Positions 44,201 to 59,054 of a stretch of DNA of 64,000 nt are shown piece after piece. Made by a program: the position numbers and the translations under genes. This DNA comes from an uncultured Coriobacteriaceae bacterium (GTDB taxonomy: Bacteria; Actinomycetota; Coriobacteriia; Coriobacteriales; Coriobacteriaceae), in assembly GCA_944319885.1 (NCBI GenBank), contig CALUFC010000005.1:1-64000 (forward strand). Direction: 5' to 3'. The notes beneath the pieces were generated by a model. It did not search any database. It was not told the DNA's origin and saw nothing but the letters and a program-made list of their open reading frames with translations. Within the stretch, counting starts at the first letter, position 1; every line of letters starts with the position of its first letter.

Positions 44201-45364
44201 ATGCAGTTCTCGAAACGACTCGATCAGTTTGGCGAGGAGGTCTTCGCCTCGCTCAACCAGAAGCGCCTGGCGCTCGAGGCCGAGGGGCGCACGATTTACA
44301 ACCTCTCGGTGGGCACGCCCGATTTCCATCCGTATGCGCACGTGGTCGACGCGCTGGTAGACGCTGCGCACGATCCTGATAATTGGAAGTACAGCTTGGG
44401 TGATCTGCCCGAGCTCAAGCAGGCGGTCTGCGAATATTACGAGCGCCGGTTTGGAGTGGCCGGCATCACGCCCGACATGGTGACCTCCTGCACGGGCACG
44501 CAGGAGGGCATGGGACAGCTCGCGCTCGCGCTGCTCGACCCGGGCGACATCGCGCTCGTGCCCGATCCGTGCTATCCCGTGTTCGCGGGCGGCGTGAAGA
44601 TCGCGGGAGGGGAGTGTGCGTACTATCCGCTCTCAGCGGAGCACGACTTTTTGCCCCATGTGGCGGACATCGACCCCGCGCTCGCCGATTGCGCAAAGTA
44701 CATGGTGGTGTCGCTGCCGGCAAATCCCGTGGGCAGCGTGGGGACGCCCGAGGTCTACGACGAGATCATCGCCTTCGCGCGCGAGCACGATTTGCTCATC
44801 ATCCACGACAACGCCTATTCCGACATCGTCTACGACGGCCCGCGCGGCGGGAGCTTCCTTGCGCGCCCCGGCGCGCTCGACGTGGGCGTGGAGTTCTTCT
44901 CGCTTTCCAAGTCGTTCAACGTCACGGGCGCCCGCGTGAGCTTTTTAGTGGGCCGCGCCGATGTGGTCGCTGCGTTCGCAAAGCTCCGCGGCCAGACCGA
45001 TTTCGGCATGTTCTATCCCATCCAGCGTGCGGCTATCGCCGCCCTCACCGGTCCGCTCGATGAGGTTGAGCATCAGCGCCATCTCTATCAGGAACGGCGC
45101 GATGCCCTCTGCGACGGGCTCGAGCGGATTGGCTGGGAGCGTCCCAACGCGCACGGCACCATGTTCGTGTGGGCGAAGCTCCCCGGGGACAGAACCGATT
45201 CCATGGCGTTTTGCGAGGAGCTCATGGAGCGCGCCGGTGTGGTGGTGACGCCCGGCGCGAGCTTCGGGCCGCATGGCGAGGGCTTTGTGCGCATGGCGCT
45301 CGTGCTGCCGCCGGAGGGCCTGGAAGCGGCGGTCGCGGCTATCGAGGCGGCGGGTATCCGCTGA
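44201..45364 (+). CDS. PLP-dependent class I/II aminotransferase (DapL/PatA-like)
   Basis: 387 aa, fold type I. Motifs: SVGTPDFHPYAHV near the N-terminus, SLPANPVGSVG, HDNAYSDIVYDG (Asp and Tyr to PLP) and SLSKSFNVTGARVSFLVG with the Schiff-base Lys. It resembles LL-diaminopimelate aminotransferases and N-acetyl-diaminopimelate aminotransferases. This window has dapH, dapA, dapB, lysA and a likely deacetylase, so it is a candidate for the missing aminotransferase of the acetyl branch. That is inference. AAAGGAGTTGACCTGCC precedes the ATG. Confidence 0.85.
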   Translation: MQFSKRLDQFGEEVFASLNQKRLALEAEGRTIYNLSVGTPDFHPYAHVVDALVDAAHDPDNWKYSLGDLPELKQAVCEYYERRFGVAGITPDMVTSCTGTQEGMGQLALALLDPGDIALVPDPCYPVFAGGVKIAGGECAYYPLSAEHDFLPHVADIDPALADCAKYMVVSLPANPVGSVGTPEVYDEIIAFAREHDLLIIHDNAYSDIVYDGPRGGSFLARPGALDVGVEFFSLSKSFNVTGARVSFLVGRADVVAAFAKLRGQTDFGMFYPIQRAAIAALTGPLDEVEHQRHLYQERRDALCDGLERIGWERPNAHGTMFVWAKLPGDRTDSMAFCEELMERAGVVVTPGASFGPHGEGFVRMALVLPPEGLEAAVAAIEAAGIR

Positions 45365-46704
45365 TGGCGGAGGCGGCGGAGCGCTCGGGCGCAGCGGGTA
45401 ACTTTGTCATCTATGCAAAGACACAGCTCGAACCGCTACACGCGCGGCCGCTGTGCGCCGTCGACAGCCTCGTGCTCTCGTGGCTCGCATACTTCAAGCT
45501 GAACGATCAAAGCCCCGTTTATCAGGGATTTTGCTCGTGGGACGGCCTGCCGGTGAGAGAGCTGCTGCGCGCGGAGGATTTCGATGCCATGTTCGGCGAG
45601 AGCTGGGATTCGCAAGGCAGCCGCGAGCTGCTGTTCGCGGTCTGTTCGAGCCCCCGCTTTCGCGACATGCGCGTGTGCGGCTATCGTACGAGCTTTTCCG
45701 AGGAGGCCGAGGAGCAGTTCGCCGCTGTGACGTTTCAGCTGTCCGACGGTTCCGTCTACGCGGCGTTTCGCGGTACCGATTCCACGCTGGTGGGCTGGAA
45801 GGAAGACTTCAACATGGCCTTTCAGAGTCCGGTGCCCGCGCAGGTTTCGGCGGCGGAATACCTCGAAGAGGTGGCGCATGCATTGCCCGGAGCGCTCTAT
45901 GCCGGTGGCCACTCCAAGGGCGGCAACCTGGCCGTGTACGCGGCGATCATGTGTCCGCATGCGCTGCAAGATCGCATCGTGCGCGTCTTCTCGCATGATG
46001 GCCCGGGATTTAACGAGCAGTTTCTGCGCGGTAAGGGATTCGCGCGCATGCGCGGCCGCATCGACAAGACGCTGCCGCGCTCGTCGATGTTCGGCATGAT
46101 CTTCGAAGATCAGGAAGACTACGCCATCGTGGACAGCACGAGCTTTGCGCTGCTGCAGCACAATCCCTTCTCCTGGGTGGTCGACGGCACCGATTTCAAG
46201 CGCGTGGAACGCATCTCTGCCGGCGCGCGCTATCTCGACAAGACGCTCTCGGATTGGATGGCGCGGATTCCGCCCGAAGAGCGCGGCAGGGTGATCGACG
46301 CCGTCTTCGATGTCATCGGCGCCACGGATGCGACCTATTTTGCCGAGATTCGCGATAGCTGGCAGGAGAGCCTGCCAAAGATGCGCGCCGCGGCAGGCGA
46401 GGTGCCGGCCGAAACGAGAGATCTGTTCAAGCGCTTGATCAAGGCGCTGGTGCGCACGGCAACGATTGGCCAGGTTGCCGATACGGCCGGTCGCGCCGCC
46501 GATGCTGCTGGCAGGCTGGTGGAATCGGCCACGCAAGCGGCAGGCAAGATGGCATCGCGTCTTCAAGGCGGCTCCTCGCCGCAAGCTGTGTCAGAGGACG
46601 GTGGCGATGCGGAGTCCGATTGCGGCGGGCTTGTGGATATCGATGCGTTCGATAGGCTCAGCAAGCTCATCGCCGAGCTGCGGGAACGCTATCCGTCTGC
46701 GTAA
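45364..46704 (+). CDS. DUF2974 (Mbeg1-like) alpha/beta-hydrolase
   Basis: A 446-aa protein of the DUF2974 family. GGHSKGGNLAVYAA (around residue 183) is the lipase nucleophile elbow with the catalytic Ser; SHDGPGFNEQF follows, and DSTSFALLQHNPFSW is a family feature. The ~100 C-terminal residues are Ala-rich and helical, ending in a charged helix. It probably acts on lipid or ester substrates. The ATG shares one base with the aminotransferase stop (TGATG), so translation is coupled. Confidence 0.8.
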   Translation: MAEAAERSGAAGNFVIYAKTQLEPLHARPLCAVDSLVLSWLAYFKLNDQSPVYQGFCSWDGLPVRELLRAEDFDAMFGESWDSQGSRELLFAVCSSPRFRDMRVCGYRTSFSEEAEEQFAAVTFQLSDGSVYAAFRGTDSTLVGWKEDFNMAFQSPVPAQVSAAEYLEEVAHALPGALYAGGHSKGGNLAVYAAIMCPHALQDRIVRVFSHDGPGFNEQFLRGKGFARMRGRIDKTLPRSSMFGMIFEDQEDYAIVDSTSFALLQHNPFSWVVDGTDFKRVERISAGARYLDKTLSDWMARIPPEERGRVIDAVFDVIGATDATYFAEIRDSWQESLPKMRAAAGEVPAETRDLFKRLIKALVRTATIGQVADTAGRAADAAGRLVESATQAAGKMASRLQGGSSPQAVSEDGGDAESDCGGLVDIDAFDRLSKLIAELRERYPSA

Positions 46705-46835: not shown

Positions 46836-47208
46836 ATGGTCACGATTGAGGACATATGGGCGCGTACGCCCTAGCATCACCCAGCCGATGGTCATGAATG
46901 GGGACTTATGGGTTCTCGGGGCGTAGCATGGTGTGCCCGATGGTCATCATCATAGACCTATGGGTTGCGTGAGCGTGGGCGATGGCGTAGCAGAGTCATT
47001 TTTGCAAGCCTGATGAGGTGTTTCGCCATACAATATGGCGATTTGAGCGTCGTTGCTCATGTTCCCAACATGTTTTCCACCCATATGTCCTCGTTCGTGA
47101 CCAGCAAAGCGGTTGGGCTATGCCGAGAACACCCATAGCCCACCGATCGTGACCACGGATACGGTGTTGCTACGGGGCACTCACTCATATCCCAAAGCAA
47201 ATGATCAT
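46836..47208. repeat. Symmetric array of six 25-bp motifs phased at 52 bp
   Basis: Three copies read on the plus strand at 46836-46860, 46888-46912 and 46940-46964. Three read on the minus strand at 47104-47080, 47156-47132 and 47208-47184. Start-to-start spacing is exactly 52 bp within each half. Conserved positions are TGGTCA (2-7), A10, G16 and TATGGG (20-25) in the first five copies; the sixth (47184-47208) is the most diverged, matching copy 1 at 13 of 25. The 27-bp spacers are partly conserved too, with TAGC at spacer positions 12-15 in four units. 52 bp equals five helical turns. It lies upstream of the NdpA-type gene. Confidence 0.85.
47024..47040. repeat. Palindrome near the centre of the array
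   Basis: Perfect hairpin CGCCAT-ACAAT-ATGGCG in the gap between the direct and inverted halves, about 10 bp from the array's axis of symmetry (47022). A second dyad CATGTT-CCC-AACATG lies at 47058-47072. Confidence 0.6.
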
Positions 47209-47416: not shown

Positions 47417-48421
47417 ATGCAAATCAACCATGCTGTCTTGCACGTTCTGGACTTCGATTCCGCGGTCAATGTGTTTTCCGAGCGCGAGCTCGACCTCGAT
47501 ACCCGCGCCGCGCGGTCGTTTGTGTCGAGGCATCTTCTGCGCGCTCGCTCGGCGGCCGACAATCGTCTCGGTTCATTTGCCGAGCAGAGCGCGTTTGCGG
47601 GCGAGATCAAGCGGTACTTGTTTGGCGAGCGGGAGTTCCTGGATCTTTCGCTTGATATCGCTGAGTTTTTGAGTGGCGAACTTTCGCGTGCGGAAAAGCT
47701 CGAGTCGACCGATGTGCTCATTGCCGATTTCGATGATGAGGACGATGTGCGCTGGTTTGCCATCTTGCTGCTGGGTAGCCGCCAGGCGTTCATGCATGAG
47801 GTTGAGAGCGCTTCGGGTTCAACGAGCTGCGGTATCGCGCGCCACTACGCCATTTTGCCGAATCCCTCGCAAAAGGTCGCGTCGTATGCGCTCGTTCGAG
47901 CGAGTTCGCTTGAGGTGCTCTACCGCGATAAGGAGCGCGTTATCGCCGGCGAGCGCCGGCAGGTTATCCCCGAGGGGCTGCTGCAGTGCACCGAGGGCGT
48001 TTCGAGCAAGGAGGTCATCGAGCAGGTGTCGCGCGTGGTGACCGAGGTTGCCGAGGAGCATGGCGCGAACACGGCCGTAGCGCTCGCCGCAGCGAAGGCG
48101 GCCATGGTCGAGGCGATTGAAGAGGACGAAGAGCTTCCGCCGTGGGACATCGTGGACGAGGCCTTCGAGGACGAGCCGCAGCTGCGCGATGCCGTGAAGC
48201 AGGCGCTGCGCGATGAGCAGGTGCCCGAGCGGGTGCATGTCGAGCGCGCCCAGGGCCGCCGCGCCGCGGTGCGCAACGTGAAGATTCGCACCGACACCGG
48301 CATCGAGATCACGCTTCCCGCCGAGCTGGCACACAACTCGGAATACGTGTCGTTCGTCAACGAGCCGAACGGCCTCATATCAATCGAGCTCAAGCAAATC
48401 GGCAGCATCGAGAACAGGTAA
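47417..48421 (+). CDS. Nucleoid-associated protein, NdpA (37-kDa) family
   Basis: A 334-aa protein with the NdpA/YejK fold (PF04245), recognised from the N-terminal ERELDLDTRAARSFVSRHL, the central FAEQSAFAGEIKRYLFGE, the CGIARHYAILPNPSQKVASYALVRASSLEVLYRDKERVI region and C-terminal ITLPAELAHNSEYVSFVNEPNG. In E. coli, YejK associates with the nucleoid and topoisomerases. GAGGGTGTTCT precedes the ATG. The gene is flanked by unusual non-coding DNA on both sides (array before, hairpins after), so it may bind or be regulated by them; this is inference. Confidence 0.8.
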   Translation: MQINHAVLHVLDFDSAVNVFSERELDLDTRAARSFVSRHLLRARSAADNRLGSFAEQSAFAGEIKRYLFGEREFLDLSLDIAEFLSGELSRAEKLESTDVLIADFDDEDDVRWFAILLLGSRQAFMHEVESASGSTSCGIARHYAILPNPSQKVASYALVRASSLEVLYRDKERVIAGERRQVIPEGLLQCTEGVSSKEVIEQVSRVVTEVAEEHGANTAVALAAAKAAMVEAIEEDEELPPWDIVDEAFEDEPQLRDAVKQALRDEQVPERVHVERAQGRRAAVRNVKIRTDTGIEITLPAELAHNSEYVSFVNEPNGLISIELKQIGSIENR

Positions 48422-58683: not shown

Positions 58684-59054
58684 GCAAGCTCCTTGGGTGA
58701 TAGCGCTCCTGCAGGGACACCGCAGACAGTCACGCGGGTGTTTCCCGCGCGCCCACCCGGCGAGCGCGCCCGCTCAACCGAGTTCGGCGGAATCGCCTCC
58801 GCACGGGGTCCTTGCCTGCCGGCTCGCCCATGCATTTTCTCATCCGCGCCTCTATCGTGAAGGCAACTGTACCATATGCTGGAGCGGCGAGCTGCCGCGC
58901 CGGGCGTTGTGTCGGGCATGTTACAGGACCCGACGGGCCGGTAATCGCGGCAGCAAACGCTCGCGTTGTGTCCGAGCGCGGCTATACTGGCAAGAACTGC
59001 TCTGCTTATCGCATGAGCTTGCTGCGGCTGCAGCGCCGAACTATGGGAGGTGCC
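58684..59054. other. Divergent control region between lysA and deacetylase
   Basis: 371 bp with no supported gene. TATACT at about 58982-58987 could be the -10 of the deacetylase gene. I looked for a lysine riboswitch or T-box and did not recognise either. Confidence 0.4.

What the first reader, a model, noticed from the sequence alone, without database searches (positions are those of the whole stretch)
46836..47208. Six-copy, 52-bp phased, mirror-symmetric motif array
Three direct and three inverted copies of a 25-bp motif (TGGTCA...TATGGG) are each exactly 52 bp apart, five helical turns, so all copies of a half face one side of the DNA. 52 is not a multiple of 3, so this is not a coding repeat; spacers are also part-conserved (TAGC at a fixed place). 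Such phasing suggests a binding array for a multimeric or nucleoid-structuring protein, or a long folded RNA. I know no described element like it.
Basis: seen in the sequence. Interest (0 to 1): 0.9.

Follow-up and report, generated by a model that had tools for sequence, protein, structure and literature searches.

The report
Phased repeat arrays paired with nuclease
The six-copy repeat is one of seven such arrays scattered between genes of this gut bacterium, and arrays of this kind go together with an undescribed DNA-cutting-enzyme-like protein in related bacteria, always with the two facing halves set a whole number of DNA turns apart, which points to a previously unknown kind of protein-DNA partnership.

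Summary
The array is real and not chance (0.11 matches expected, 5 found; none of 100 shuffles as many). It is not an ndpA feature: ndpA is in all nine genus genomes, the array in two. The same element (3-4 forward plus 3-4 inverted 24-bp copies, 52-bp period) lies at 7 intergenic loci in this genome and 11 in a related species. A second genus keeps the geometry with a changed motif. In all four array-bearing genomes one array adjoins a gene for a ~330-aa protein, whose >50%-identical form occurs only in those four of 67 family genomes. Its model is an AbiEi-antitoxin-like domain plus a Vsr/I-Bth0305I-like nuclease domain. Across Coriobacteriales, 26 of 33 relatives of this gene are flanked by convergent repeat pairs with their own motif (controls 0/29, 4/660); two more motifs are dispersed in their genomes. 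Forward-reverse distances lock to 10.55 bp, the DNA helical repeat, and the phase learned from the window's system predicts four other sets. Most likely the arrays are cognate sites where this protein assembles a looped complex, in a repeat-enzyme pairing that works like REPIN-RAYT but with unrelated parts. Cognate-site reading about 0.85; the biological role is inferred.

The parts
46837..46860 (+). forward copy 1, TGGTCACGATTGAGGACATATGGG
46889..46912 (+). forward copy 2, 52 bp on
46941..46964 (+). forward copy 3, 52 bp on
47080..47103 (-). inverted copy 4; outer distance to forward copy 3 is 163 bp, in the common helical phase
47132..47155 (-). inverted copy 5, 52 bp on
47184..47207 (-). 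inverted copy 6, degenerate in this genome, better kept in the related species G005
46870..46876 (+). CGTAGCA-type box (CCTAGCA) at unit position 34-40 of copy 1
   Evidence: consensus
46922..46928 (+). CGTAGCA box of copy 2
   Evidence: consensus
47168..47174 (-). CGTAGCA box of copy 6
   Evidence: consensus
47023..47041 (.). small palindrome TCGCCATACAATATGGCGA in the central gap, conserved in G005; role unclear (terminator-like hairpins lie in the centre of several long-gap arrays)
47417..48421 (+). downstream neighbour: ndpA-like gene (PF04245); not functionally tied to the array
45169..46704 (+). upstream neighbour: Mbeg1-like (PF11187) gene; the listed ORF start is probably too far upstream

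Best explanation
The array is a non-coding, dispersed chromosomal element made of cognate recognition sites for an undescribed two-domain protein (AbiEi-antitoxin-like N-terminal domain, Vsr/I-Bth0305I-like PD-(D/E)XK nuclease C-terminal domain) encoded beside another array of the same genome (G000:C4:25444-26442). Proposed working: monomers bind the asymmetric 24-bp sites, on one DNA face within each half (52 bp = 5 turns), and contact one another across the two convergent halves, so the DNA between is looped or bent; the halves therefore tolerate only whole-turn spacing changes. The complex at the gene's own array represses its promoter, as AbiEi does at its inverted repeats. At the other loci the array is a REPIN-like dispersed repeat that spread, and is maintained, with the help of the nuclease. 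Shown: the arrays, their dispersal, phasing, constraint, co-occurrence with the gene, one empty site. Inferred: binding, looping, autoregulation, nuclease-driven spread.
For: (1) Seven arrays in G000, eleven in G005, seven of them at orthologous places. (2) A second genus (G064, G065) keeps 52 bp and 3+3/4 copies with motif TGGTCAA..CTGGG. (3) The >50%-identical protein is found in exactly the four array-bearing genomes of 67, each time next to an array. (4) 26 of 33 gene loci carry convergent TGG[TAC]C pairs against 0/29 control windows and 4/660 shuffles. (5) Two further motifs, taken from the flanks of family members, are dispersed as convergent pairs in their genomes. (6) Forward-reverse distance: 23 distinct classes fit a period of 10.55 bp with R 0.92, none of 200,000 random sets as high; the phase fitted on the window's system predicts four independent sets, P 2e-5 to 0.004. 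(7) Between G000 and G005, core positions are 98% identical, the middle 81%, spacers 70%. (8) Fold: N-terminal domain best to AbiEi (6y8q, Z 8.6), C-terminal to I-Bth0305I (Z 9.4) and Vsr (Z 7.2); D235, E246 and H253 invariant in the family. (9) AbiEi and Rv2827c bind 23-bp inverted repeats 3 or 13 bp apart and autorepress (PMC7319586). (10) Presence/absence: the G005 array between metC-like and yigZ-like genes is missing in G000, 73 bp in place of 493 bp.
Against: No binding or cutting was tested. The window's own motif rests on two clades only. G007 carries dispersed GCAGAATAATAAA pairs while its only close homologue is flanked by a different motif. Seven of 33 gene loci showed no TGG pair by the script's rule. 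Outside close relatives, protein and motif identity correlate weakly (rho 0.21, Mantel 62 of 5000). Structure matches at Z 8.6 and 9.4 are modest, and Foldseek alone gave no E below 0.001. Most positions are conserved between species, so movement is slow at best; no target-site duplication was found.
Confidence: 0.6

Rival explanations
1. Purely regulatory or architectural sites: the protein is a DNA-bending or bridging factor (nuclease domain silent or incidental) that regulates its own gene and organises or insulates intergenic regions elsewhere; arrays do not spread by its action.
For: Strict helical phasing and an AbiEi-like domain fit cooperative binding or looping; pairs sit upstream of the gene at most loci; array positions are largely conserved between species.
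Against: The catalytic-type residues D235 and E246 are invariant. Of 25 loci with clear neighbours none is a divergent promoter region (12 ++, 7 --, 6 +-, 0 -+), unlike a regulon of operators. An empty site exists in G000.
Confidence: 0.25
2. Classical mobile element: each array is a MITE-like remnant or a pair of transposon ends (as in Tn7-like elements with several transposase sites per end), with a true transposase elsewhere.
For: Several inverted sites per end, dispersed, non-coding, presence/absence difference.
Against: No conserved ends and no duplicated target could be recognised; the central gap is not conserved between loci, and its length varies by whole helical turns; only a nuclease-like gene is known to track the arrays.
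Confidence: 0.08
3. Protection or titration system: the arrays hold the nuclease in an inactive assembly and mark the host chromosome, so that the enzyme attacks DNA lacking arrays (defence-like or addiction-like).
For: AbiEi-like domain from a toxin-antitoxin family plus a nuclease domain; tight coupling of sites and gene.
Against: No PADLOC or PHROG match; no defence or AbiEii-like toxin gene among the neighbours examined.
Confidence: 0.05
4. NdpA or another nucleoid protein binds the array, or the array is a long structured RNA.
For: One array lies upstream of ndpA in G000 and G005.
Against: ndpA is in all nine genus genomes at the same place with no array in seven of them; six other arrays in G000 are not at ndpA; copies are not nested complements.
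Confidence: 0.02

Closest known systems
REPIN-RAYT (REP doublets and REP-associated tyrosine transposases)
   Same: Intergenic, dispersed, inverted repeat doublets; a single-copy gene for a DNA-processing enzyme flanked by the same repeats; clade-specific repeat sequence; largely vertical persistence (PMC3116915).
   Different: The partner is an AbiEi/Vsr-like protein, not an HUH Y1 transposase; the units are asymmetric 24-bp sites, not palindromes; the distance between facing units is quantised in helical turns; in two genera the pair is expanded to 3-5 copies per half at 52 bp.
AbiE type IV toxin-antitoxin operators (AbiEi, Rv2827c)
   Same: About 23-bp inverted recognition sites whose spacing differs by one helical turn between systems, bound by monomers with bending and autorepression in AbiEi (PMC7319586); structural match of the N-terminal domain.
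   Different: Sites are dispersed over the chromosome, far apart (48-257 bp outer distance) and arrayed; no AbiEii neighbour seen; [quoted passage not shown]
Vsr / DUF559 / MTES_1575 PD-(D/E)XK nucleases and the homing endonuclease I-Bth0305I
   Same: C-terminal fold and conserved acidic, lysine and histidine residues.
   Different: Below Pfam cut-offs for most members; no known member is linked to dispersed phased site arrays in the papers found.

Membership tests
REPIN-RAYT | inverted doublets dispersed in intergenic space | tested here: met
REPIN-RAYT | repeats flank the gene of the partner enzyme, with type-specific sequence | tested here: met
REPIN-RAYT | partner is an HUH Y1 (IS200-like) transposase | tested here: not met
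   partner has an AbiEi-like domain plus a Vsr-like nuclease domain; no transposase family hit
REPIN-RAYT | unit is an imperfect palindrome | tested here: not met
   24-bp motif asymmetric, TGGTCA..TATGGG
AbiE type IV toxin-antitoxin | AbiEi antitoxin domain | tested here: met
   model residues 1-190 against 6y8q 67-195, Z 8.6, 124 aligned, well above the next unrelated row
[quoted passage not shown]
   the match starts at model residue 1 and covers only the AbiEi C-terminal domain
AbiE type IV toxin-antitoxin | adjacent AbiEii nucleotidyltransferase toxin | tested here: not met
   neighbours examined in G000, G064 and G065 are tyrS, ABC_trans_CmpB, DUF6020, YebC, TrkA
PD-(D/E)XK, Vsr-like nuclease | fold and catalytic-type residues | tested here: met
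   I-Bth0305I Z 9.4, Vsr Z 7.2; D235, E246, H253 invariant, K248 mostly K, sometimes Q; 17 of 19 members touch PF18741, best 6.9e-7
PD-(D/E)XK, Vsr-like nuclease | cuts or nicks DNA | not testable with these tools
   needs a biochemical assay
NdpA-associated array | tracks ndpA | tested here: not met
MITE or insertion sequence | conserved termini with target-site duplication | tested here: inconclusive
   one empty site found, but flanks too diverged to call exact ends

The most novel reading that the evidence does not exclude
An undescribed class of bacterial repeat-enzyme systems: dispersed convergent sites, helically phased and in some species expanded to regular arrays, co-diverging with a family of AbiEi-Vsr nuclease-like proteins across Coriobacteriales, in which a looped nucleoprotein synapse controls a homing-type nuclease.
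Probability: 0.55. Interest if true: 0.92.

Novelty: categorically new. Interest (0 to 1): 0.86.

Why it matters
Dispersed repeats with a dedicated enzyme were known mainly as REPIN-RAYT. A second, unrelated solution, with sites whose helical phase is visible in genome sequence alone, gives a direct test of how such sequence populations persist, gives a function to a class of unnamed nuclease-like genes that is widespread in gut Coriobacteria, and offers natural, clade-specific long recognition sites with known geometry.

Tried and rejected
Rfam: only a lysine riboswitch, nothing at the array. Tandem Repeats Finder misses the array. A viral contig hit (L091) is a recent duplication in unrelated DNA, not an array. 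No match of the protein in phages, only a weak Collinsella record in plasmids. NdpA link rejected. Long RNA rejected. A search for the missing G005 array (C2:13103) by assumed synteny in G000:C1 found nothing. Central hairpins: strong in several long-gap arrays, absent in short-gap ones, so not a constant part. Foldseek alone gave no significant match for either model; the VIA-align second look did. Literature: no paper found on such arrays, on Collinsella intergenic repeats, or on DUF559 with inverted repeats; the library is open-access only, so this does not prove novelty.

Full report
Observation. The six copies are present as described: three forward (46837, 46889, 46941) and three inverted (47080, 47132, 47184), each 52 bp apart. 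The pattern TGGTCA-N12-TATGGG with at most one mismatch is found 5 times in 64 kb, all here, against 0.11 expected, and no shuffle of 100 reaches 5. Copy 6 is degenerate in this genome. The fixed TAGC in the spacers is confirmed: the consensus CGTAGCA lies at unit positions 34-40.

It is dispersed. A search of the genome with two motif units 52 bp apart finds seven arrays in this genome and eleven in another species of the genus (G005; the same contigs are in the public record as an uncultured Coriobacteriaceae MAG), none in seven other genomes of the genus, and none with the pattern read backwards. Every copy in these arrays follows its neighbour in the same half at exactly 52 bp, with one extra out-of-register copy at one locus. 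Seven arrays sit at orthologous places in the two species: beside engB, manA, tyrS, ndpA, valS/clpX, the rplX region and a CPBP gene near rpsL. Comparing orthologous copies, the core of the motif is 98% identical, its middle 81%, the spacers 70%, so the motif is under constraint.

Not an ndpA feature. The Mbeg1-like/ndpA gene order is kept in all nine genus genomes, but seven have a short intergenic region (about 160-230 bp) without any array, against about 700 bp here. One array found only in G005 corresponds to an empty place in G000 (73 bp between the flanks in place of 493 bp).

A second genus. Allowing mismatches, two of three genomes of another genus of the family show the same geometry with a changed motif (TGGTCAA...CTGGG): about 14 loci in G065 and 11-12 in G064, with 52-bp spacing (occasionally 51, 53 or 63) and mostly 76-77 bp between facing copies. 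Of 397 Coriobacteriales genomes only these four carry TGGTCA-N14-TGGG arrays.

The partner gene. In each of these four genomes one array adjoins a gene for a protein of about 330 aa (in G065 the gene lies between two arrays). A search of 67 family genomes finds the >50%-identical form only in these four genomes (E 1e-226, 9e-195, 5e-110, 6e-108; the next is 8e-76 at 43%). The gene sits at different places in the two genera (tyrS in one, DUF6020 neighbours in the other), so arrays and gene go together rather than sharing one ancestral locus.

The family and its own repeats. More distant members (34-47% identity) in other genomes are flanked by inverted pairs beginning TGG[TAC]C, with a different motif in each clade. 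By a fixed rule, 26 of 33 gene loci have such a pair, against 0 of 29 control windows from the same genus and 4 of 660 shuffles. Two of these motifs were searched for in whole genomes: TGGTCAAAATACCCNGATTGTGCG is dispersed as convergent pairs at 5-8 loci in each of G029, G041 and G052 and absent from G000, and TGGTCAAANANCCCNGCAGAATAATAAA likewise in G004, G006 and G007 and absent from eight other genomes. Protein and motif similarity fall together among close relatives, but only weakly beyond. At E below 1e-40 the protein family is in 233 of 397 genomes of the order.

Helical phase. Within G004, G006 and G007 the start-to-start distance of facing copies is close to 157, 168, 179 or 190: steps of one turn. 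Measured from outer edge to outer edge, 78 loci in five sets give 23 distinct classes that fit a period of 10.55 bp with R = 0.92; none of 200,000 random sets reaches this over any period from 9.5 to 11.55. As a held-out check, the phase fitted on the eleven loci of the window's system predicts the four other sets (P = 2e-5, 0.003, 0.004 and 1e-4 on distinct values). Tandem spacings are also near whole turns (52; 42 and 63 bp at two other loci). Since the intervening sequence is not conserved between loci, this is best read as contact between proteins bound at facing sites through looped or bent DNA. That step is inference.

The protein. The model is confident (pLDDT 86.6 for the whole protein, 90.8 for the N-terminal 192 residues). 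Residues 195-302 match the I-Bth0305I homing endonuclease catalytic domain (Z 9.4, 95 aligned, 2.4 A), an endonuclease-like gonococcal protein (Z 7.4) and Vsr (Z 7.2). The N-terminal domain matches the C-terminal domain of the AbiEi antitoxin (Z 8.6, 124 aligned) and of Rv2827c (Z 5.5), above unrelated rows. D235, E246, H253, D261 and R264 are invariant and K248 mostly lysine. Foldseek alone gave nothing significant, and a Z near 8 can be fortuitous; the match gains weight because AbiEi proteins are known to bind asymmetric 23-bp sites in inverted pairs, 3 bp apart in AbiEi and 13 bp apart in Rv2827c, and to autorepress, with bending in AbiEi (PMC7319586). Only weak Pfam matches (MTES_1575 REase, DUF559) are found; NCBIfam, PADLOC and PHROG give nothing useful.

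Placement. Among 25 loci with clear neighbours, 19 lie between co-directional and 6 between convergent genes, none between divergent genes. This argues against a set of promoter operators and resembles REP-type elements.

Mechanism and rivals. Shown: dispersal, constraint, helical phasing, linkage to the gene family, clade-specific motifs, an empty site. Inferred: the protein binds the sites; facing sites are joined; the gene's own array mediates autorepression; the nuclease domain drives slow spread. The closest analogue is REPIN-RAYT (PMC3116915), which it matches in organisation but not in enzyme or unit structure, so it is not a member. The main rival is a purely regulatory or architectural role. 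Points against the favoured view: orphan sites in G007, seven gene loci without a pair by the rule used, few independent clades for the window's motif, conserved positions, no target duplication.

Novelty. No description was found in the open-access library; subscription papers and preprints could not be searched. I rate it categorically new in its combination of parts, with the reservation that the individual domains are known.

Noticed in passing
window 58693-58862 (-): Lysine riboswitch (RF00168, 72 bits).
   Followed up: no
window 47023-47041: Palindrome TCGCCATACAATATGGCGA in the central gap, conserved in G005; several long-gap arrays hold strong terminator-like hairpins in their centre (L051, L055, L060, L061, L063), short-gap arrays do not.
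   Followed up: partly
G007 and L130: Dispersed GCAGAATAATAAA pairs although the only close homologue found there is flanked by a different motif: orphan sites, or a gene missing from an 89% complete assembly.
   Followed up: partly
L098 4990-7331: In G065 the nuclease gene lies between two arrays 1.6 kb apart that share long stretches of sequence, as if one had been copied from the other.
   Followed up: no
L189, L193, L194: G064, G065 and G042 carry a second family member with its own different flanking motif, so two site-protein systems may coexist in one genome.
   Followed up: partly
L051 5436-6446, L063 3836-4888, L111 12597-13583: The nuclease-like genes score low in a codon model of the host genes (50, 16, 16 against mostly over 100 for neighbours of that length), a hint of foreign origin.
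   Followed up: no
L054 and L062: In G000 and G005 an array lies directly after rplX in the ribosomal protein gene region.
   Followed up: no
L203 1035-1287: A family member in another family of the order (G308) also has convergent TGGTCAATTTTTCC..GAATGGGC copies, two of them in one half 50 bp apart.
   Followed up: no
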